Shown: positions 2,642 to 51,354, counted from the first letter of the stretch. The stretch: 51,494 nt of DNA from Patulibacter minatonensis DSM 18081 (GCF_000519325.1 NZ_KI912613.1:1321661-1373154), one strand, 5' to 3'. The notes: generated from the sequence alone by a model not told the origin. Translations and numbers: made by a program.

Positions 2642-2922
2642 GGGCGTGACGTCGGACCATCGGCGTCGGTCGGCCGGCGGGGCGGGTGCGGTTGGTCAAG
2701 CGGGGCTTGACGTCGAACCATCGGGATCGGTCGGCCGACGGGGCGGGTGCGGTTGGTCAAGCGGGGCTTGACGTCGAACCATCGGCGTCGGTCGGCCGAC
2801 GGGGCGGGTGCGGTTGGTCAAGCGGGGCCTGACGTCGGACCATCGGGATCGGCCGGCCGAGGGGGCGGGTGCGGTTCGCGGCGTGGGGCGACGCGTTCAA
2901 CCATCGCCGTCGGTTGGCGGGT
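2642..2922. repeat. 61-bp tandem repeat array (about 4 units plus a degenerate one)
   Basis: Units starting at 2688, 2749 and 2810 are nearly identical over the full 61 bp. A partial unit precedes them (from 2642), and a decayed copy follows to about 2922. Each unit contains two palindromes: GTCAAGC-ggg-GCTTGAC and GTCGGCCGAC. The whole unit is conserved, so this is not a repeat-spacer (CRISPR) layout. The array fills the 2567-3028 intergenic gap in front of a small membrane-protein gene; I see no other gene there. Confidence 0.9.
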
Positions 2923-3028
2923 CTCGTGCACTCGGGGGTGGGTGGCGTCGGTACGGGTTCGTACGGCGATACGGATCTGATGGGTCGGCGACCGGGAGTC
3001 GATCGATGGTGGGCGCATCATCAGGTCC

Positions 3029-3181
3029 ATGCTCATCGTCCTGGTCCTCCTCGCCGCCTGGCTCGTCGTCAACGTGACGCTCCTCGGTGCCGTGGCCGTG
3101 GCGAACCAGCGCGGCCAGAAGGCCGTCGACCGCGCCGCCGTCGAAGCGGTCCACGCGCCGGTCTTCGCCGCCGCCCGCTGA
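3029..3181 (+). CDS. Small single-pass membrane protein, 50 aa (paralogue of 14706-14858)
   Basis: The 50-aa product begins MLIVLVLLAAWLVVNVTLLG, a single hydrophobic helix over about residues 2-24. A short hydrophilic stretch follows, and the protein ends APVFAAAR. It aligns without gaps to another 50-aa protein at 14706-14858 on the minus strand. The upstream DNA of both genes shares a GATACG(G/A)A box exactly 61 bp before the ATG, which supports the start. Function is unknown. The gene sits between a tandem-repeat array and a long palindrome. Its last ten codons, including the stop, are duplicated directly downstream. Confidence 0.65.
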   Translation: MLIVLVLLAAWLVVNVTLLGAVAVANQRGQKAVDRAAVEAVHAPVFAAAR

Positions 3182-3220
3182 CCCCGCGCCCACGCGCCGG
3201 TCTTCGCCGCCGCCCGCTGA
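3152..3220. repeat. 39-bp-spaced direct duplication of a gene's 3' end
   Basis: A 30-bp stretch at 3152-3181, covering the last codons and TGA of the small membrane-protein gene, recurs exactly at 3191-3220. Nine unrelated bases separate the copies. The second copy is not in an open gene. It looks like a recent tandem duplication. Confidence 0.9.
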
Positions 3221-3310
3221 GGTCACCCCTTTCGGGGCGGGCGCGGGGCCCGGGTCGGCCCGGGTCGGCCCCGTTCTGGTGTGCCGGGTCGGCGGGCCCG
3301 CGACCGTGAT

Positions 3311-3407
3311 GTGCCACGCCCTCGGGTCGAGCGCGGACCGTGGCGCGTCGCGGTCGTTCTACGACCGCGACGCGCCACGGTCCGCCCGCGAGTCAGGGGT
3401 GTGGCAC
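3311..3407. repeat. 97-bp palindrome with a perfect 24-bp inner stem
   Basis: The inner arms 3333-3356 and 3362-3385 are perfect inverted repeats around the 5-nt loop TTCTA. The outer arms GTGCCAC (3311-3317) and GTGGCAC (3401-3407) pair symmetrically about the same centre (3359), with partial pairing between. The gap 3182-3502 otherwise holds only the duplicated 3' end and the downstream promoter. This could be a mobile-palindrome (REP/MITE-like) element or a very strong terminator; no T-run follows on either strand. Confidence 0.9.
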
Positions 3408-3477
3408 GTGAGGGCCGCCGGGTGATCGGTCGCCTGCGCCGTCCGCCCCGCGTTCGCGCCGCCCGCTCCGCCAGAAG

Positions 3478-3493
3478 CTACCTGCGGTAGGAT
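3478..3493 (+). promoter_or_regulatory. Possible operator/-10 upstream of the DUF4442 gene
   Basis: CTACC-TGC-GGTAG (3478-3490) is a short perfect inverted repeat. It overlaps TAGGAT (3488-3493), a fair -10 hexamer, 9 bases before the ATG at 3503. The placement suggests a repressible promoter with a very short leader. No clear -35 is seen. Confidence 0.4.
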
Positions 3494-3502
3494 CACGGGA
3501 CG

Positions 3503-3976
3503 ATGCCCGCGATCGACCTGCCCTCCGCGTACCGCAAGCTCGAGGGGCTGCCGCTCGGGCGGTCGGCCGTGTCGCGGATCTACCGGACCGCCGCCCCGTA
3601 CTTCCTGACGATCCCGGCGAAGCTCGCCGCGCTGGAGCCCGGCCGCGCGGAGGCCACGATGCCCGCGGTGCCGTGGACGCGCAACCACCTGGGGACCGTC
3701 CACGCGATCGCCCAGTGCAACCTGGCCGAGTACGTGATGGGCGCGCTCGCGGAGGCCACGATCCCCGCGACGCACCGGTGGATCCCCCGCGGGATGACCA
3801 TCGACTACCTGGCGAAGGCGACCGGCCGGCTGACGGCGGAGGCGGTCCTCGTGCTGCCGGACGACCTGGCGGAGAAGCAGGAGCTCCCGGTCGAGATCCG
3901 CATCACCGACCCGACGGGCGTCGAGGTCTCGCACGCCCAGATCCGCATCTGGGTGACGGAGAAGCCGGCGCGCTGA
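3503..3976 (+). CDS. DUF4442 / hotdog-fold thioesterase-like protein
   Basis: This 157-aa protein has the features of the DUF4442 branch of the hotdog thioesterase superfamily: a MPAVPWTRNHLGTVHAIAQCNLAEYVMG stretch (about residues 53-80, split here by reading) and a strand-rich C-terminal half. Members are presumed acyl-CoA thioesterases, but the substrate is not known. The length is normal for the family. The ATG at 3503 follows a weak GGGA and a likely promoter. The gene stands alone between repeat sequence and an opposing acetyltransferase gene, so neighbours give no hint of substrate. Confidence 0.75.
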   Translation: MPAIDLPSAYRKLEGLPLGRSAVSRIYRTAAPYFLTIPAKLAALEPGRAEATMPAVPWTRNHLGTVHAIAQCNLAEYVMGALAEATIPATHRWIPRGMTIDYLAKATGRLTAEAVLVLPDDLAEKQELPVEIRITDPTGVEVSHAQIRIWVTEKPAR

Positions 3977-4037
3977 CCGCGCTGGGGCGTGGCGGCGGCC
4001 CCTCGCCGGACTCGTCCGGTCGCCGGCGCGCTCGCCC

Positions 4038-4739
4038 TCAGCCGCCGGCCGCTCCCCCGCGCAGGTCCTCCAGCGTCCGGCGCTGGGTCCCGTCCTCGGC
4101 GAAGTTGTCCGCCGCCAGCCAGTCCCGGAACGCCGCCCCGGCCCGCGGCCACTCCCGGTCGAGCAGCGAGAACCAGGCCGTGTCGCGGTTGCGGCCCTTG
4201 ACGACCATGTCCTGCCGGAACGTGCCCTCGTACGCGAAGCCGAACCGCTCGGCCGCCCGCCGCGACCGGGCGTTCAGCGCGTTGCACTTCCACTCCAGGC
4301 GGCGGTTGCCGAGCGCCTCGAAGGCGTGGGCGGCGAGCAGGAACACGGCCTCCGTCGCGTCCGGCGTCCGCTGGAGCGCGGCCCCGAACCACACGTGGGC
4401 GATCTCGATCCGCCCGAGCTCGGGCGCGATCCGGGCGTAGGCGAGCATGCCGGCCGGAACGTCGTCGGCGACCCGCACGATCGCGAAGAAGCGCTGGTCG
4501 GCCGGCATGCCGGCGTGGAGGGCGACGAGCCACGCGTCGAACGCCGCCCGGTCGTCGAACGGCCCGTACGGGAGGTAGTCCCAGAGGTGCGGATCCCCGG
4601 ACGCCGCGGCGTCCCAGAGCGCCGCCGCGTGGTCGGCCGGATCGAGCGGCTCCAGCCGGACGTGGGTCCCCGTCAGCGTCTCGCGGCCCGGCGCCCGCGC
4701 GCCCGCGAAGTCGACGGGCGGACCGAGCTCGGGAGCCAT
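4038..4739 (-). CDS. GNAT N-acetyltransferase, RimJ/RimL-like
   Basis: The 233-aa protein contains the acceptor-side motif LTGTHVRLEPLDPADHAAAL (residues about 21-40). The GNAT core EIAHVWFGAALQRTPDATEA follows, and then the RimJ/RimL-type signature with RRLEWKCNALNARSRRAAE and FGFAYEGTFRQDMVVKGRNRD. It should transfer acetyl from acetyl-CoA to an amine, possibly an N-terminal residue of a ribosomal protein or a small molecule. The ATG at 4739 directly precedes MAPELGPPVDF; much longer in-frame upstream sequence is non-coding on this strand. It is transcribed divergently from the GT2 gene at 4803. Confidence 0.85.
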   Translation of the reverse strand: MAPELGPPVDFAGARAPGRETLTGTHVRLEPLDPADHAAALWDAAASGDPHLWDYLPYGPFDDRAAFDAWLVALHAGMPADQRFFAIVRVADDVPAGMLAYARIAPELGRIEIAHVWFGAALQRTPDATEAVFLLAAHAFEALGNRRLEWKCNALNARSRRAAERFGFAYEGTFRQDMVVKGRNRDTAWFSLLDREWPRAGAAFRDWLAADNFAEDGTQRRTLEDLRGGAAGG

Positions 4740-4802
4740 GCCGCCACGGTAGACCCCTGCGGCGGGCGATGCGGGACCCGCGCGCTCTGGGACGATCCCT
4801 CC

Positions 4803-6218
4803 GTGCGCGCCCTGCACCTCCTCGCCCTCGGCCTCCTCGCGTGGACCCACGCCGGGTGGGCCGTCGTCCTCCGCGCCCTCCGTCGCGCGGGCCGGGGGCG
4901 CGTGCCCGACGACCGGGAGGCCGCGCCGGCCTCGACGGTCCCGTCGACCCCCGTCCCGCGGAGCCCGGCCCCCGGTCGCGACGTCCCGACGGTCGCGTCC
5001 TCGTCGTCCGTCGCCACGGCCACCGAGGCCGTCGCCCCGTCGGCCGCGGTCCCCGGTCCGGCCGTCCGGTCGGCGGTGACCCCGTCGTCCGGACCCTCCG
5101 CGCTCCGCGTGTCCGTCGTCATCGCCGCGTACGCCGAGGAGGACGCGATCGCCGAGACCCTCCGCCGTCTGGCCGCGCAGACGTGGCCCCGCGAGCGGCT
5201 GCAGATCATCGTCGCCTGCGACGGGTCGACCGACCGGACCGCCGAGCGGGCCCGCGAGGCCGGGGCCGACCTCGTGCTCGAGCTGCCGCGCGGCGGGAAG
5301 CACGCGGCGCAGGCCGGCGGGGTCGCCCGGGCCGACGGGGACGTCCTGGCCTTCAGCGACGCCAACACGTCGTGGGAGCCCGACGCGCTGGCGGAGCTCG
5401 TCGCCGCGTTCGCCGATCCGCGCGTCGGCTACGCGTGCGGCCGGGTGACGTTCACGTCCGAGGACGGCGGGACGAACCAGGAGGGCGCGTACTGGCGCCT
5501 CGAGATGGCCCTGCGTCGCATGGAGAGCGACTGGTGGTCGGTGACCGCCGGCAACGGCGCGATCTACGCGCTCCGGGCGTCGCTGTGGCCGCGGCTGCGG
5601 ACCGCCTTCGGCCACGACCTCGCGCTGCCGCACCAGACGGTCCGGGCCGGGATGCTCGCCGTCGACCGCCCGACGGCGCGGGCGAGCGAGCCGATGGTCC
5701 CGACCGTCGAGGGCGAGTGGCGCCGGAAGCGGCGCATGATGAACCAGATGTGGCGGGTCGTCCTGCGTGGCGGCGAGGACGGCGGTCTGCGCGGCGGCGT
5801 CCTCGACCCCCGCGGCGTGCCGCCCCGCTACCTGGCGGCGCTCGTCAGCCACCGCCACCTCCGGTACGCGAGCCCGTTCCTGCACCTGCTGGCGCTGGCG
5901 GCCGGATTCGTCGTCGCGGTGGGCGGCGTGCCGGGCGGGGCCGCGACTCCCGTGGGCGGCGGATCGCTGCCGGTCGCGCCGACGTCGCGCGCCGGCCGCG
6001 GGGCCCGCCGTCGCGTCCGCCCGCGCCTGCACCTGCTGCTGCTCGCCGCGCACCTCGCCCTGTTCGCGGGAGCCGCGGGCGCGGGCGTCCGACCGTCGCG
6101 GCCCCTGCTGCTCGCGCGGTACTACGTGCTGATGACCGCCTCGATCGCCGCCGGCCTGGCCGACCACCTGCGCCACGGGACCCCCGCGGGCTGGGACCCG
6201 GCGGAGGGGACGCGATGA
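4803..6218 (+). CDS. Membrane glycosyltransferase family 2
   Basis: The 471-aa protein has an N-terminal membrane helix (residues about 3-25) and an 80-residue Ser/Pro/Val linker. A GT-A domain then starts near residue 103 (VSVVIAAYAEEDAI), with DGSTD and SDANT (DXD-like metal site), GNGAIYALR, and an RKRRMMNQMWR stretch at the place of the QXXRW motif of processive synthases. Two more hydrophobic segments occupy the C-terminus. It probably polymerises or extends a polysaccharide at the inner membrane. GTG 4803 is chosen because the frame upstream lacks coding character. Its stop overlaps the next gene (ATGA at 6215), so the two are likely co-translated. Confidence 0.82.
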   Translation: MRALHLLALGLLAWTHAGWAVVLRALRRAGRGRVPDDREAAPASTVPSTPVPRSPAPGRDVPTVASSSSVATATEAVAPSAAVPGPAVRSAVTPSSGPSALRVSVVIAAYAEEDAIAETLRRLAAQTWPRERLQIIVACDGSTDRTAERAREAGADLVLELPRGGKHAAQAGGVARADGDVLAFSDANTSWEPDALAELVAAFADPRVGYACGRVTFTSEDGGTNQEGAYWRLEMALRRMESDWWSVTAGNGAIYALRASLWPRLRTAFGHDLALPHQTVRAGMLAVDRPTARASEPMVPTVEGEWRRKRRMMNQMWRVVLRGGEDGGLRGGVLDPRGVPPRYLAALVSHRHLRYASPFLHLLALAAGFVVAVGGVPGGAATPVGGGSLPVAPTSRAGRGARRRVRPRLHLLLLAAHLALFAGAAGAGVRPSRPLLLARYYVLMTASIAAGLADHLRHGTPAGWDPAEGTR

Positions 6219-7147
6219 GCGCCCCGGAGGATCCGGGCGCAGCTGCGGAGCCTCCCGTGGGCGACGCCCGCGGAGTGCATCCGCCGGGCCACGCCCCCGC
6301 CGATCGCGCCGCCGAGGGCCGGTCCGCCGACGGAGACGATCACCATGGGCCGGCCCGGCCCGGCGACGGCCCGCGCGTCCACGACCTCACCGGCCGCGCG
6401 CCCGACGGCCACGCCGACCTGCGCGCCGCGATGCGCGACGCCGGACGCGACGTCGGGCCCGACGGACCGATCCCGCTGCCCACGCGGATCTCCTGCGGCG
6501 ACGTGACGCGGCGCGCGTTCGACGTCGTCGTGTCGTTCCTCGCGGTCGTGGTCCTCGCGATCCCGCTGGCGCTCGTGCTCCTGGTCGTGCGGCTGGAGTC
6601 GCGCGGCAACCCGATCTTCCGGCAGCGCCGGGTCGGCCTGGGCGGTCGGGAGTTCGACGTCCTGAAGGTCCGGACGATGGTCCAGGGCGCCGAGAAGCTC
6701 GGCGCCGGACTGGCGATCGAGAAGGGCGACGCCCGCATCACGCGCCTCGGCCGGCTGCTGCGCCGCACCTCGATCGACGAGCTGCCGCAGTTCTGGAACG
6801 TCCTGCGCGGCGAGATGGCGATCGTCGGCCCCCGACCGACGGTGCCGGTGCAGGTCGAGCGCTACGACGAGCGTCAGGTCGAGCGGCTGATCGTCCGGCC
6901 GGGCCTCACGGGCTGGGCGCAGGTCCAGGGCCGCACCACGCTCTCCTGGCCCGAGCGGATCGAGTTCGACCGCTGGTACGTCGCGCACCGCACCCTGCGG
7001 ACGGACGCCCGGATCCTCCTGATGACCGTCCGGGTCGTCCTCGGCGGATCGGGCGTCGAGCGGGATGGCGCCGCGTGGACGGTGCCGGACGCCGAGGCGG
7101 GGCCGGCGGCCGACACCACCACGGACGAGCGCGGCGACAGGGCCTGA
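6215..7147 (+). CDS. Sugar transferase (polyprenyl-phosphate glycosyl-1-phosphate transferase, PglC/WcaJ C-terminal type)
   Basis: The 310-aa protein has about 90 disordered residues, one membrane helix (FDVVVSFLAVVVLAIPLALV) and the bacterial sugar-transferase domain. The domain motifs are FRQRRVGLGGREFDVLKVRTM (key residues R-R-G..F..K-R-T-M), RRTSIDELPQFWNVLRGEM with the catalytic DE-type pair, GPRP, and RPGLTGWAQVQGR. This monotopic enzyme transfers a sugar phosphate to undecaprenyl phosphate, the first committed step of a glycan repeat. The multi-helix N-terminal half of WbaP/WcaJ is absent. ATG 6215 overlaps the GT2 stop codon. With the upstream GTs it supports a polysaccharide locus. 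Confidence 0.88.
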   Translation: MSAPEDPGAAAEPPVGDARGVHPPGHAPADRAAEGRSADGDDHHGPARPGDGPRVHDLTGRAPDGHADLRAAMRDAGRDVGPDGPIPLPTRISCGDVTRRAFDVVVSFLAVVVLAIPLALVLLVVRLESRGNPIFRQRRVGLGGREFDVLKVRTMVQGAEKLGAGLAIEKGDARITRLGRLLRRTSIDELPQFWNVLRGEMAIVGPRPTVPVQVERYDERQVERLIVRPGLTGWAQVQGRTTLSWPERIEFDRWYVAHRTLRTDARILLMTVRVVLGGSGVERDGAAWTVPDAEAGPAADTTTDERGDRA

Positions 7148-46795: not shown

Positions 46796-48364
46796 TCAGG
46801 CCCCCGACCGCGTCCTGGGGCAGAAGTCGAAGAGCAGGATGCTCCACGGGTACTGCGGCTTGAAGCGGGACGCCACGAGACGGAGCTCGCGCCGGCGGCC
46901 CTCGCCGTCGACGGCCTGCCCGCCCCACTGCAGGAGCTGGCCGCCGTCCCGCGTGTCGATGGTCCTCAGCGACGCCGGAGAGAGGCCCACGAGACGCACC
47001 GGCGCGCGCTTCGTCTGCCAGAGCCACTTCTGCACGGCCTCCGGGCCCTTGCTCAGCGCCACGTTCTTGCCCTTCGGCAGGACGAGCCCCTCGGGCAGCG
47101 TGTTCCCCGCGGGACACCGCTCGCCACGCCCGTAGAGGTCGAACCCGGTCCCGAGGTCCCCGAAGTGGAAGAACGCCTTGATGTCCGGTGCGCGGTTCAG
47201 CGCGGCGTAGTCGGCGAAGAGACCCGCGACCTCGTCGCGGTCCTCGCGCCCGGCGGGGACCCCCCGCTTCGAGAAGCCCGACGCGGCGGGCTGGGCGGGG
47301 GCGCGGTCCGCCCGGGCGAGGTCGCGCTCGTGCGACACCGGCGGGTCGGTCAGGAGCTCGTGCGCGGCGGCACCGGCCCCACCGGCGAGGACGGCGACGG
47401 CGAGCACCGACGCCGTCGCGAGGCCGCGCCGGAGCCCGGGCCGGGACTCCAGCGAGCCGAGGAACCGGCGCAGGGCGGCGCGGGGCCCCGGGGCCGGCCG
47501 GCCGCCCGGCGCGAGCCCGAGCGCGCGGTGCAGCCCGGCGATCAGCTCCGCACCGTCGCGGGGCCGGTCGGCGGGGTCGATCGCCATGCCGCGGGCGAGG
47601 ACCTCGTCGACCGCGGCGGGGAGCTCCGGCCGGCGCTCCGACGCCGACGGGCGGTCCCGGATCGCGTGCGCGACGAGCATCGCGGGCACCGTCGGCGCGG
47701 AGAACGGCGGCGTCCCGGTCAGGGTCTCGAAGGCGACGCACGCCAGGCCGTAGAGGTCGGAGCGCGCGTCGCCCGACTCGCCCTGGACGAGCTCCGGCGC
47801 CAGGTACGCGGGGGTGCCGACGATCTCGGTGGTCGCGTCGCCGCGGCCCCAGCGACCGGCGTCGTGCAGGGCGCCCGCGACGCCGAAGTCCGTCAGCGAT
47901 GCGCGCGGTCCGTCGGCGTCGTCGCGGACCAGGACGTTCGCGGGCTTGACGTCGCGGTGCAGGCACCCGGCCTCGTGGGCGGCGTCGAGCCCGGACGCGA
48001 GCTGCTCCAGGATCCGCACCGCGTCGGGGACCGACGGCGGACCCCCGGCCAGGCGGTGGCGGAGGTCGGAGCCCTCGACCCACTGCAGCGCGACGTACGG
48101 CCGGCCGTCGACGACGCCGACGTGGTGGACGGCCACGACCGACGGGTGGTCGATGCTCGCCGCCAGCCGGGCCTCGCGCCGGAGGCCCTCCTGCAGCTCG
48201 GGCAGGTCGGAGAGGCGCTCCGCGGCGACCTTCAGCGCGACGGTCCGGTCGAGCTCCTCGTCGTGCGCCCGGTAGACGACGCCCATGCCGCCGCGCCCCG
48301 CGACGGCCTCGACGACGTAGTGGTCGTCGAAACGCGCGCCGGGCTCGAGGTCCCAGGCGCTCAC
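46796..48364 (-). CDS. Membrane Ser/Thr protein kinase (Hanks type), active
   Basis: The 522-aa protein has a complete kinase domain: AGRGGMGVVYRAHD (P-loop), Lys45 in VALKVAAE, HRDVKPANV (Asp138), TDFGVAG (Asp159), an activation loop with Thr residues, GTPAYLAPE and SDLYGLACVAFETLTGTPPF. A membrane helix follows (about 327-350, LATASVLAVAVLAGGAGAAA). The extracytoplasmic C-terminal domain of about 170 residues ends SILLFDFCPRTRSGA. It lacks PASTA repeats. The GTG start overlaps the stop of the upstream pseudokinase (GTGA), so both are made together. The external domain probably senses a cell-envelope signal. Confidence 0.92.
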   Translation of the reverse strand: MSAWDLEPGARFDDHYVVEAVAGRGGMGVVYRAHDEELDRTVALKVAAERLSDLPELQEGLRREARLAASIDHPSVVAVHHVGVVDGRPYVALQWVEGSDLRHRLAGGPPSVPDAVRILEQLASGLDAAHEAGCLHRDVKPANVLVRDDADGPRASLTDFGVAGALHDAGRWGRGDATTEIVGTPAYLAPELVQGESGDARSDLYGLACVAFETLTGTPPFSAPTVPAMLVAHAIRDRPSASERRPELPAAVDEVLARGMAIDPADRPRDGAELIAGLHRALGLAPGGRPAPGPRAALRRFLGSLESRPGLRRGLATASVLAVAVLAGGAGAAAHELLTDPPVSHERDLARADRAPAQPAASGFSKRGVPAGREDRDEVAGLFADYAALNRAPDIKAFFHFGDLGTGFDLYGRGERCPAGNTLPEGLVLPKGKNVALSKGPEAVQKWLWQTKRAPVRLVGLSPASLRTIDTRDGGQLLQWGGQAVDGEGRRRELRLVASRFKPQYPWSILLFDFCPRTRSGA

Positions 48365-49986
48365 GATCCGGTCCCCGTCCGCGGGCAGAGGTCGACGAGG
48401 TCGACGAGCCACTCGGTCCCGAGCCCCGTGCGCGCCAGCCAGTAGCGGACCTCGCGTCGCTCGCCGGACGGCAGGACCGCGACGCCCGACCAGGAGGCCC
48501 GCAGCCGGCCGGCGAACCGGACCCCGGCCGGGGCGAGGTCCTCGAGCGCCCAGGGCAGCCGCCGCGCGGTGCTCAGGACCTGGAGCTGCCGGTACCCGGC
48601 GCCGCGCTTCAGCTCGGTGCCCGCGCGGGGCGGCGCGGTCCGGGTGCACCGTCCGTCGCTCTCCGGGGACTCGACCTGCAGCCGGGGGGAGAGCGCCTGG
48701 CTCCAGTCGGACTGGCTGAACGAGTCCGGCCGCGACCCGGACAGGACGTCCCGCAGCTGGAGCACGACGGCGCGCTGCGACACGGGACCTGGGGCGTCGG
48801 CGGGGCGCTGCGGCAGCTTCGTGCCCTCCTTGAAGCGCGGCGGTGCCGCGAGCGGCGGAGCACCGGCGTCCTCGGGCGGACCGTCGTCCGACGCGGCGAG
48901 CGCGACGCCGCCGACGGCGCCGCCGACCGCGGCGACCACGACCACGACGGCGGCGACGACCCGGCGCCGCACGCGGGTGGCCGACGAGGGGCGTGACCGG
49001 CGCCCGTCCCGTCGCCCGGCGTCCGCGCCGTCCCGCCGCCCGTCGCGGGACCCCGCGGAGGCGGGCAGGTCGTGGGTGACGTCCCACGCGACCGCGCCGG
49101 TGCCGGTCTCCATCGCCCGGTCGTCCCCGGCGTGCGGACGGTCGCCGAGCGCCCCGGCGACGGCGGCGGCGAGCGCCCCGGCCGACGGCGGCCGCTCGGC
49201 GGGGTCGATCGCCATCCCGCGCTCGAGGACGAGATCGAGCTCCCGCGGCAGCTCGGGGCGCCGGCTCGTGACCCGGGGCCGCGGCCGGGTCGCGTGGGCG
49301 GTGAGCACCGCGGCCCCGGTCGGGCCGGTGAACGGCGGGGTGCCCGACAGCAGCTCGAACGCGAGGCACGCGAGCGCGTAGACGTCGGCCCGCGCGTCGG
49401 GGGTCCCGCCGTCCGCGAGCTCCGGCGCCAGTGCGCCGGGCAGGCCGGCGGTCTCGGGGGCGCGGGTCAGTGCCGGTCCGACGCCGGCCTCCAGCACGGT
49501 GCGCCGCACGCCGAGCCCGGTCAGCCAGGCGCGCGGCCCCGACGGGGTGTCGCGGACGAGCACGCACGCGGGCCCGAGGTCACCGTGGACCTGTCCGGCA
49601 GCGTGCACGGCGTCGAGCGCGCCGGCGAGCTGCTCGACGAGATCGGCGGCCTCGGCGGCGGGCGGCGGACCCGCGGAGTAGCGGTGGCCGAGGTCGTCCC
49701 CGTCGATCCAGGCGGTCGCGACGTACGGCCGGTCGTCGTCCGTCCCGACGTCGACGGGACGCACCAGGACGGGGTGCTCGACCCGGCGTGCCTCGCCGAC
49801 CGCCCGGGAGAGCCGCTCGCCGAGGTCGTCCGCCACCAGCGCCTCGTCGCGGGCGACCTCCACCGCGACGGGCGCGTCCTCCTGCTCGTCGTGCGCGCGG
49901 AGGACCGGTCCGAGGACCCCGTCGCCGGCGGGCCCCTCGACCCGATGTCGCCCGCCGATCAGGCGGCCGGTCTGCGCACCCGACAT
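48361..49986 (-). CDS. Membrane pseudokinase (Ser/Thr kinase fold with lost catalytic residues)
   Basis: The 541-aa protein has the same layout as the kinase downstream: kinase-like domain, disordered Arg/Asp-rich linker, helix (about 322-345, VVAAVVVVVAAVGGAVGGVA) and an external domain ending WLVDLVDLCPRTGTGS. Key residues are changed. The beta3 Lys is Glu43 (VAVEVA), HRDxKPxN reads HGDLGPAC (134-141), and DFG reads GLG (157-159). The glycine-rich loop is also degenerate (GPAGDGVLG). PEL...ADVYALACLAFELLSGTPPF is retained. It should not transfer phosphate and may act as a scaffold or activator of the coupled kinase. TAGCGT about 8 bp before ATG 49986 suggests a nearly leaderless start. Confidence 0.88.
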   Translation of the reverse strand: MSGAQTGRLIGGRHRVEGPAGDGVLGPVLRAHDEQEDAPVAVEVARDEALVADDLGERLSRAVGEARRVEHPVLVRPVDVGTDDDRPYVATAWIDGDDLGHRYSAGPPPAAEAADLVEQLAGALDAVHAAGQVHGDLGPACVLVRDTPSGPRAWLTGLGVRRTVLEAGVGPALTRAPETAGLPGALAPELADGGTPDARADVYALACLAFELLSGTPPFTGPTGAAVLTAHATRPRPRVTSRRPELPRELDLVLERGMAIDPAERPPSAGALAAAVAGALGDRPHAGDDRAMETGTGAVAWDVTHDLPASAGSRDGRRDGADAGRRDGRRSRPSSATRVRRRVVAAVVVVVAAVGGAVGGVALAASDDGPPEDAGAPPLAAPPRFKEGTKLPQRPADAPGPVSQRAVVLQLRDVLSGSRPDSFSQSDWSQALSPRLQVESPESDGRCTRTAPPRAGTELKRGAGYRQLQVLSTARRLPWALEDLAPAGVRFAGRLRASWSGVAVLPSGERREVRYWLARTGLGTEWLVDLVDLCPRTGTGS

Positions 49987-50043: not shown

Positions 50044-50454
50044 TCATGGACGGAGCCTCCGTGCCAGGCGGCGCGCCCGGCGGAGGCCGCCTCGGCGGTG
50101 GTCCTCGAGGTCGGCGTGCTGGCGGGCGAGGACCGACCAGGCCATCACCGCCTCGTCGACGACGTCGTCGTCCGGCTCGCGCGCGGACACGACCGCCAGC
50201 CGCCGGCGGAGGACGAGGGGGTGGGCGGCGTCGGGCCGGACGACGTGGTCGAGGGTGACGAGGACGGCGCCGGACCCGGCGGTGATCCCGACGACGAGGC
50301 GCGGTCGCCGGGGGGCCAGGCGCTCCGGCGCGCCCGGGCCGAGCTCGCGGGCGGGGACGACGATCGCGGGCGCGCGGGCGATCCGCTCGGCCAGCTCCCG
50401 GCGACCGGCCGGCGTGGCCAGGTCCGGGGCCCAGGGGTGGCGCGCGTCCGGCAT
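50044..50454 (-). CDS. Hypothetical protein, 136 aa
   Basis: I do not recognise this protein. It begins MPDARHPWAPDLATPAGRREL and has a strand-rich middle (RPRLVVGITAGSGAVLVTLDHVV) and an Arg-rich, helical, basic C-terminus (GGLRRARRLARRLRP) that could bind nucleic acid or a membrane surface. There is no signal peptide or helix long enough to cross a membrane. It lies 57 bp upstream of the pseudokinase gene on the same strand and downstream of an FHA gene, so it may belong to the same phospho-signalling unit. Confidence 0.55.
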   Translation of the reverse strand: MPDARHPWAPDLATPAGRRELAERIARAPAIVVPARELGPGAPERLAPRRPRLVVGITAGSGAVLVTLDHVVRPDAAHPLVLRRRLAVVSAREPDDDVVDEAVMAWSVLARQHADLEDHRRGGLRRARRLARRLRP

Positions 50455-50497
50455 CGGCCCAGCCTCCGCCTCCGGGGCGGCCGCGACCAGCCCCGCG

Positions 50498-50519
50498 GGG
50501 GGTGGTCCGGACCACCCCC
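50498..50519. promoter_or_regulatory. Perfect 22-bp palindrome upstream of the hypothetical gene
   Basis: The core is GGTGGTCCGGACCACC, extended by three G and three C at the ends. It lies 44 bp upstream of the 50454 start on the minus strand. A perfect dyad without a loop is better suited to a protein-binding site than a terminator. Confidence 0.55.
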
Positions 50520-50577
50520 TCGTGGCGGTGACGTCGACGGCGGCCGGCCGCGACCGCGGCTCCGCCTCCGTGTCGAC

Positions 50578-50600
50578 TCCTGTACCCCTGAGGTACAGGA
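50578..50600. promoter_or_regulatory. Inverted repeat between the FHA gene and the hypothetical gene
   Basis: TCCTGTACC-cctga-GGTACAGGA is a perfect 9-bp stem beginning 22 bp after the FHA stop. It could be the FHA terminator or an operator for the next gene. Confidence 0.5.
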
Positions 50601-50621
50601 CCCGATAAGGCGCCGTCCGGG

Positions 50622-51308
50622 CTACTCCACGTCGTGGCGCCCGACGATCCCCGTGGCGATCGCGATCTCCGCGAGCCGGACGCGCTTGGCGCCCTGCGCG
50701 AGGTCGGCGACGCGGGCGCGTTCGAAGAGCGCCTTCAGGTGCGTCCGGACGGCGTCGTCGGACAGCACGAGCTCGGCGGCGATCTCGCGGTTGGACGCCG
50801 GGGTCGGTCCCGGCGGATCGGCGAGCAGCGGGCGGCAGAGCGCGACGAGCACGCGGCGCTGCGCGGGGGTGACGTCGGGGCGCGCGGGCAGCCGGTCGCC
50901 CGCCAGCGTGGTGGCGGCCACGGCGCTGCGCGGTGCGCGGAACGCCAGGGTCGACTCGCCGACGGAGATCACGTCGCCGTCCTGCAGCCGCCGCCGCCCG
51001 ACGACCCGCTCCGCGCCGACGAACGTGCCGTTGCGCGAGAGGCCGTCGTCCGCGACCGCCCAGTCGCCGCCGGCCCGCACGAGCTCCGCGTGGGTGCGGG
51101 AGGCCTGCCCGTCGGTGTCCAGGGCGACGTCGCAGGCGGGGCTGCGGCCGACCCAGAGCGCCTCGTCGCCCTGCTCGAGCAGCACGATCCGCTGCCCGCC
51201 GCCGGCGGGGGAGACGACGAGGAACGGCAGCTCCTCGGCCTCGGCCCGGAGGATCGCCTGGAGCGTCACGGCGCGCGAGGAGTCCGGGGCCAGCTGCTCG
51301 ACCTTCAC
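50622..51308 (-). CDS. FHA-domain protein with C-terminal winged-helix-like region
   Basis: The 228-aa cytoplasmic protein has a FHA domain at about residues 35-130: VGRSPACDV, the Ser-Arg-Thr-His SRTHAELV, NGTFVGAERV and LQDGDVISVG. These are the phosphothreonine-binding residues. A C-terminal domain (about 145-220) carries an HTH-like segment, NREIAAELVLSDDAVRTHLKALFERARV, reminiscent of LuxR-type recognition helices. It would bind a phosphorylated partner, plausibly the kinase encoded 2 kb downstream, and couple it to DNA or RNA polymerase. The start is GTG 51308. Confidence 0.85.
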   Translation of the reverse strand: MKVEQLAPDSSRAVTLQAILRAEAEELPFLVVSPAGGGQRIVLLEQGDEALWVGRSPACDVALDTDGQASRTHAELVRAGGDWAVADDGLSRNGTFVGAERVVGRRRLQDGDVISVGESTLAFRAPRSAVAATTLAGDRLPARPDVTPAQRRVLVALCRPLLADPPGPTPASNREIAAELVLSDDAVRTHLKALFERARVADLAQGAKRVRLAEIAIATGIVGRHDVE

Positions 51309-51354
51309 CGGGCGACCGCCATGCGGCCGAGCCTAGATGATCGCCCCGGCCGCA

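What the first reader, a model, noticed from the sequence alone, without database searches (positions are those of the whole stretch)
46796..49986. Coupled active kinase and pseudokinase with matching extracytoplasmic tails
Two adjacent kinase-fold genes overlap by 4 bp. The downstream one keeps Lys45, HRD and DFG. The upstream one has Glu at the beta3 Lys, HGDLGPAC in place of the catalytic loop and GLG in place of DFG. Both end in a domain with a shared last motif (D-x-CPRT). This looks like gene duplication followed by conversion of one copy into an obligate regulatory partner, with both external domains sensing at the envelope. A FHA-HTH protein and a basic hypothetical protein lie directly upstream on the same strand, completing a possible phosphorelay to DNA.
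Basis: partly seen in the sequence, partly recalled or inferred. Interest (0 to 1): 0.68.

Follow-up and report, generated by a model that had tools for sequence, protein, structure and literature searches.

The report
Active kinase paired with dead twin
A high-GC bacterium carries two overlapping genes for membrane protein kinases, one apparently working and one that has lost the catalytic residues; unrelated but similarly built working/dead kinase pairs beside the same kind of DNA-binding phosphopeptide reader recur in relatives, which suggests a repeatedly evolved receptor/co-receptor signalling design.

Summary
Two same-strand genes overlap by 4 bp (GTGA). The downstream kinase (46796-48364) is intact. 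The upstream one (48361-49986) has lost the beta3 Lys, alphaC Glu, catalytic-loop Lys and Asn, DFG Asp and HRD Arg; it keeps GxGxxG, the HRD-position Asp, APE and the C-lobe. It is the only copy with these losses among 49 aligned kinase domains. The two are sisters (99-100/98), whole-gene duplicates including the external tail. Codon structure is preserved, so it does not look like a decaying pseudogene.

New: the FHA-LuxR gene beside the pair belongs to a family that lies within 3 kb of a Hanks kinase at 48 of 83 loci. Eight FHA-LuxR loci (7 genera, 3 families) hold a second, independent system: an active kinase followed by a C-lobe-truncated pseudokinase with the same ~285-aa external domain. 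Common origin with the window's pseudokinase is rejected (AU p=0.0098). Paired kinase/pseudokinase receptors beside FHA-LuxR thus arose at least twice. Most likely role: non-catalytic co-receptor and docking platform. This is inferred, untested. "Phosphorelay" is the wrong word.

The parts
46796..48364 (-). Active Hanks-type Ser/Thr kinase, 522 aa (GTG start): kinase domain ~9-283, TM ~315-333, extracytoplasmic tail ~345-522
   Evidence: Pfam Pkinase 3.6e-39; closest solved chains PknE 4.6e-54 and PknB 4.2e-46; VALK, HRDVKPAN, DFG, APE intact; TM by hydropathy
48361..49986 (-). Pseudokinase, 541 aa: kinase fold ~11-283, Thr-bearing juxtamembrane ~285-342, TM ~343-365, homologous tail ~372-541
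   Evidence: Pfam Pkinase 1.4e-16; motif losses; sister of the active kinase; codon structure intact
48361..48364 (-). 4-bp GTGA stop/start overlap (translational coupling inferred)
46799..47341 (-). Extracytoplasmic tail of the active kinase, homologous to the pseudokinase tail
   Evidence: score 96 vs shuffle max 60; alignment A3; profile of both tails found only in this genome among 396 of the phylum
48364..48870 (-). Extracytoplasmic tail of the pseudokinase, ending DLCPRT; two tail Cys align roughly with those of the active partner
   Evidence: only weak chance-level matches in 231 other genomes of the order
50044..50454 (-). Small basic protein of unknown family, 136 aa, coding-like, 57 nt upstream of the pseudokinase
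   Evidence: no Pfam match; GC3 0.95; only weak matches (E>=3.8e-4) elsewhere in the order
50455..50621 (-). 167-nt intergenic region with palindromes 50580-50598 (CTGTACC-N5-GGTACAG, only perfect copy in the genome) and 50498-50519 (22-bp perfect); candidate operator, terminator or attenuator
50622..51308 (-). FHA domain plus LuxR-type HTH protein, 228 aa
   Evidence: Pfam FHA 6.1e-15; GerE 0.0013, below cut-off; family found at E<=1e-20 in 78 of 232 genomes of the order

Best explanation
The locus encodes a two-subunit membrane receptor-kinase system. A tandem duplication of a membrane Hanks kinase gave an active kinase and a non-catalytic twin, co-translated through the GTGA overlap and both carrying the same type of extracytoplasmic domain. 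The twin most likely acts as a co-receptor: it pairs with the active kinase through kinase and/or external domains, and when phosphorylated on its Thr-containing juxtamembrane segment it can serve as a docking platform for the FHA-LuxR protein, which then changes transcription. Shown by computation: duplication, loss of the catalytic residues, retention of the fold and reading frame, homologous tails, family-wide linkage of FHA-LuxR with kinases, and independent recurrence of the same architecture. Inferred: translational coupling, heterodimerisation, direction of regulation, phosphosite, target genes, and the signal.
For: Sister relation and whole-gene homology. Catalytic residues lost while fold residues and codon structure are kept. 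FHA-LuxR within 3 kb of a Hanks kinase at 48 of 83 loci sampled by FHA similarity. Eight independent-type pairs of active kinase plus truncated pseudokinase with a matching ectodomain, all next to FHA-LuxR. In these pairs the pseudokinase ectodomain is as constrained as the active one (mean p-distance 0.56 vs 0.54) while its kinase part diverges 1.55 times more (0.58 vs 0.38), and the partner tails have mirrored distances (r=0.89; 6 of 40320 permutations as high). The pseudokinase juxtamembrane carries Thr (ETGT, DVTHD) while that of the active kinase has none (read by eye). Precedents: the MviN pseudokinase tail is phosphorylated by PknB and recruits FhaA (PMC12599244); EmbR, an FHA transcription factor, is controlled by PknH (PMC4601284).
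Against: No orthologue of the window pair, so no comparative test of constraint on this pseudokinase itself. Its tail has diverged more (28% identity by MAFFT) than its kinase domain (48-49%), the opposite of the conserved pairs. The FHA-LuxR orthologue in G113 has no kinase beside it. The retained GxGxxG and catalytic-loop Asp leave nucleotide binding or unusual activity possible. The structure model failed (pLDDT 33), so no dimer evidence exists.
Confidence: 0.5

Rival explanations
1. Pure docking scaffold, as in MviN/FhaA: the pseudokinase does not regulate the kinase but is its substrate and, once phosphorylated, recruits the FHA protein to the membrane and sequesters or releases it.
For: Thr residues in the pseudokinase juxtamembrane and none in that of the active kinase; MviN precedent (PMC12599244); adjacent FHA gene.
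Against: Matching external domains in both partners, here and in the eight other pairs, are not needed for a cytoplasmic scaffold.
Confidence: 0.2
2. Decoy that competes with the active kinase for ligand, homodimerisation or FHA protein and damps signalling (dominant negative).
For: Matching tails; EmbR2 as a proposed dominant-negative paralogue of EmbR (PMC4601284).
Against: Nothing in the sequence distinguishes damping from activation; stop/start coupling gives no hint of dose.
Confidence: 0.12
3. Decaying duplicate: one copy is losing function and will become a pseudogene.
For: Long branch (1.37 vs 0.57), unusual amino-acid make-up, restricted to one genome.
Against: Reading frame, codon-position GC (0.84/0.60/0.95), C-lobe motifs, TM and tail are intact over 541 aa; upstream position with stop/start overlap is kept; the same architecture recurs independently.
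Confidence: 0.1
4. Atypical enzyme: the protein keeps the nucleotide loop and catalytic-loop Asp and has a different activity, as SelO (AMPylation) or SidJ (glutamylation) do.
For: GDGVLG and HGD kept.
Against: beta3 Lys, alphaC Glu, loop Lys and Asn, and DFG Asp are all lost; [quoted passage not shown]
Confidence: 0.08

Closest known systems
M. tuberculosis MviN (ActPs3) pseudokinase with PknB and FhaA
   Same: Hanks-type pseudokinase, membrane protein, active kinase plus FHA protein in one pathway
   Different: MviN is a peptidoglycan-synthesis membrane protein with an appended pseudokinase, no homologous active partner in tandem, FhaA is not known as a transcription factor; ActPs3 has an activation-loop deletion and VALT, not seen here (PMC12599244)
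PknH/EmbR
   Same: membrane kinase controlling an FHA-bearing transcription factor
   Different: EmbR is SARP-type with a C-terminal FHA; here N-terminal FHA and LuxR-like HTH; no pseudokinase described in that pair (PMC4601284)
HER2/HER3-type receptor kinase and pseudokinase pairs (from memory); C. elegans OLD-1/FLOR-1 (PMC10523662, title and abstract start only)
   Same: receptor kinase with a degenerate partner
   Different: eukaryotic tyrosine kinases with unrelated outputs; heterodimer not tested here
ChrS pseudokinase / HrrS in Corynebacterium glutamicum
   Same: inactive membrane kinase shown to pair with an active paralogue and change transcription (PMC9491836)
   Different: histidine kinases, laboratory-evolved frameshift, not a Hanks fold
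ActPs1, ActPs2, DYD and other bacterial pseudokinase families
   Same: Hanks-type pseudokinases, some actinobacterial and membrane-linked
   Different: family-defining substitutions or indels differ from K->E, HGDLGPAC, GLG without deletions (PMC12599244)

Membership tests
Hanks-type (PknB-like) kinase superfamily, upstream gene | kinase fold by profile above curated cut-off | tested here: met
   Pkinase 61.2 bits vs cut-off 31.7
Pseudokinase (loss of canonical catalytic triad K/D/D) | beta3 Lys and DFG Asp absent | tested here: met
   E43, GLG
Pseudokinase (loss of canonical catalytic triad K/D/D) | HRD Asp absent (only in those that lose all three) | tested here: not met
   HGD retains Asp; a partial-triad pseudokinase
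Pseudokinase (loss of canonical catalytic triad K/D/D) | no phosphotransfer activity | not testable with these tools
   needs purified protein
ActPs2 | beta3 Lys to Arg, HRD Asp to Asn, DFG deletion, ~32-aa and ~250-aa insertions | tested here: not met
   Glu, Asp, GLG, no insertions (PMC12599244)
ActPs3 (MviN) | complete motif loss with activation-loop deletion | tested here: not met
   full-length activation segment, Asp and GxGxxG kept (PMC12599244)
ActPs1 | substitutions in all three catalytic residues, frequent loss of G-helix, PQQ domain | tested here: not met
   HRD-position Asp kept; no PQQ domain match (PMC12599244)
DYD | beta3 Lys to Arg, alphaC Glu absent, DYD motif | tested here: not met
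   alphaC Glu absent, but Glu at beta3 and GLG motif (PMC12599244)
PASTA kinase PknB/Stk1 (NF033483) | whole-protein score above cut-off, PASTA repeats | tested here: not met
   232 and 143 bits vs cut-off 450; no PASTA match
Conserved kinase/truncated-pseudokinase pairs found here (A2 ectodomain) | A2 ectodomain and C-lobe-less pseudokinase of the same clade | tested here: not met
   no A2 match in this genome; common origin rejected, AU p=0.0098
FHA-LuxR transcription factor | FHA domain with pThr-binding residues and LuxR-type HTH | tested here: inconclusive
   FHA strong (GR, SRTH, NGT present by eye); GerE match below its curated cut-off

The most novel reading that the evidence does not exclude
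High-GC bacteria of this class have repeatedly evolved two-subunit receptor Ser/Thr kinases made of an active kinase and a pseudokinase co-receptor with matching external domains, which signal to DNA through an FHA-LuxR protein: a bacterial counterpart of kinase/pseudokinase receptor heterodimers coupled to a short transcriptional output.
Probability: 0.45. Interest if true: 0.78.

Novelty: new variant of a known kind. Interest (0 to 1): 0.6.

Why it matters
Functions of bacterial Hanks-type pseudokinases are largely unknown. A recurrent, conserved pairing with an active paralogue, a shared external domain and an FHA transcription factor supplies a ready partner, input and output for testing what such a pseudokinase does. 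Two independent origins let one ask which features of a dead kinase are needed to partner a live one.

Tried and rejected
AlphaFold of the pseudokinase with only its twin as alignment gave mean pLDDT 33, so no fold search was run. A genome-contig scan for orthologues found only an unrelated Aquisphaera kinase. Tail searches in the genus, order and phylum found nothing beyond the pair itself except weak chance-level hits. The PknB back-to-back interface (Arg10, Leu33, Asp76, positions from memory) was mapped by eye from the PDB alignments: the pseudokinase has Arg and Asp but Glu for Leu33, the active kinase has His, His and Leu; uninformative. The palindrome CTGTACC-N5-GGTACAG was considered as an FHA-LuxR operator: unique at zero mismatches in the genome and absent around the G113 orthologue, so unsupported. 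G230 also has two tandem copies of the A2 ectodomain, but its frames are broken in a draft assembly and both copies look kinase-like; not counted.

Full report
OBSERVATION. The two genes lie on the minus strand: pseudokinase 48361-49986 (541 aa, ATG) and kinase 46796-48364 (522 aa, GTG), sharing GTGA. The kinase keeps GRGGMG, VALK, alphaC Glu, HRDVKPAN, DFG and APE. The upstream protein reads GDGVLG, VAVE, Ala at alphaC Glu, HGDLGPAC, GLG, APE. Among 49 kinase domains aligned, it is the only one with these losses. Profile support for the kinase fold is strong for both (Pkinase 135 and 61 bits, cut-off 31.7); the closest solved structures are PknE and PknB.

DUPLICATION. The pair is 48-49% identical over the kinase domain, the best match of either in its own genome (next 42% and 40%). 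In trees they are sisters with support 100/98 and 99/98; in the first, the pseudokinase end branch is 1.37 against 0.57. The external tails are homologous: local score 96, against a maximum of 60 in 500 shuffles, and each tail has two cysteines, the last in the shared D-x-CPRT motif. Duplication of the whole gene followed by one-sided change is therefore well supported. Codon-position GC in the pseudokinase (0.84/0.60/0.95) matches that of its neighbours, so it reads as a maintained coding gene.

DISTRIBUTION OF THIS PAIR. Searches with the full pseudokinase in 61 genomes (own and relatives), with a tail in the genus and in the order (232 genomes), and with a profile of both tails in 396 genomes sampled from the phylum found no orthologue.

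THE FHA-LuxR CONTEXT. The FHA-HTH family was found at E<=1e-20 in 78 of 232 genomes of the order. Loci were fetched from the list of FHA matches; at 48 of 83 a Hanks kinase lies within 3 kb, in divergent, convergent or same-strand arrangement. This is a lower bound, since some contigs end nearby. With about ten kinases in a 4-5 Mb genome, chance would give a few per cent at most (my estimate). The same genome has a second such module at 1114126-1115855. But the closest orthologue of this FHA gene (79% aa, G113) has no kinase in the 19 kb fetched around it, and the DNA similarity stops at the gene's ends. Between the FHA gene and the small basic gene lies a 167-nt gap with two palindromes and a strong predicted hairpin region (z=-2.85), so FHA and the kinase pair may be separate transcripts.

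A SECOND, INDEPENDENT SYSTEM. Eight FHA-LuxR loci carry an active kinase followed by a degenerate kinase with the same external domain: G014, G017, G043, G113, G204, G207, G225 and G698 (7 genera, 3 families). The degenerate copies stop shortly after the DFG region and have no APE or C-lobe. Catalytic loops read HGQLTAAS, HGAVRADN, HRALEPSC, HGPLTPAS, HGALTAGS, HGDVRARN, HGDVSAGN and HGDLTDAD; some keep the Lys, the Asp or DFG. In G113 the active partner is broken by a contig end, leaving its tail. The ~285-aa external domain has no Pfam match in the one pseudokinase scanned. In the tail tree, run on seven of the pairs plus unpaired kinases, pseudokinase tails form one clade (98/97) and their active partners another (97/98). 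Tail distances of partners correlate (r=0.89; 6 of 40320 permutations as high), which shows stable co-inheritance but not by itself interaction. External domains are about equally divergent in active and dead copies (0.54 vs 0.56), while the kinase part of dead copies diverges 1.55 times more. Selection therefore appears to keep the external domain while catalysis is released.

TWO ORIGINS. Holding the window pseudokinase together with seven of the truncated pseudokinases is rejected (AU p=0.0098; the test is sensitive to long branches). The tails are unrelated by sequence (no A2 match in the genome), the gene order is reversed (dead copy first here, active first in all eight), and the window copy keeps its C-lobe. 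The same architecture thus arose at least twice beside the same class of DNA-binding reader. HRD-Arg to Gly occurred in both lineages (7 of 8 truncated copies, and here).

MECHANISM. Best reading: the active kinase and its twin form a receptor with matching external domains; the twin modulates the kinase and, phosphorylated in its Thr-bearing juxtamembrane (ETGT, DVTHD; the active kinase has no Thr there, by eye), can dock the FHA-LuxR protein. Precedents are PknB-MviN-FhaA (PMC12599244) and PknH-EmbR (PMC4601284). Heterodimerisation, the phosphosite, targets and the signal are inferred. 'Phosphorelay' should be dropped: FHA proteins read phosphothreonine and do not carry phosphate onward.

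KNOWN OR NEW. In the recent family survey (PMC12599244), none of the described bacterial pseudokinase families whose features I compared fits the motif pattern, and I found no paper describing tandem kinase/pseudokinase receptors with an FHA-LuxR gene in the open library searched; subscription papers and preprints were largely out of reach. The parts are known kinds; the recurrent arrangement is the new element.

Noticed in passing
L122, L101, L136, L149, L154, L166, L175, L224: Eight conserved active-kinase/truncated-pseudokinase pairs with a shared ~285-aa external domain next to FHA-LuxR, in 7 genera and 3 families; an independent and better conserved version of the window's arrangement.
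   Followed up: yes
window 50580-50598 and 50498-50519: Two palindromes in the FHA-to-operon gap: CTGTACC-N5-GGTACAG (only perfect copy in the genome) and a 22-bp perfect palindrome GGGGGTGGTCCGGACCACCCCC.
   Followed up: partly
window 50620-51310 vs L086 7689-8382: 80% DNA identity to genome G113 is confined to the FHA-LuxR gene; no flanking similarity, as if the gene moved alone.
   Followed up: partly
G000:C1:1266019-1371616 (around the window): Seven of the ten kinase-like genes of this genome lie within ~105 kb, including a kinase whose C-terminal part occupies window ~1-597 on the + strand.
   Followed up: no
L205 (G230:C25) 2648-6473: Tandem copies of the A2-ectodomain kinase with broken frames beside FHA-LuxR; draft-assembly error or decay.
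   Followed up: partly
L206 3960-6221 (G112:C311): A weaker A2-ectodomain match in a 754-aa frame with no kinase domain detected, a possible separate use of the domain.
   Followed up: no
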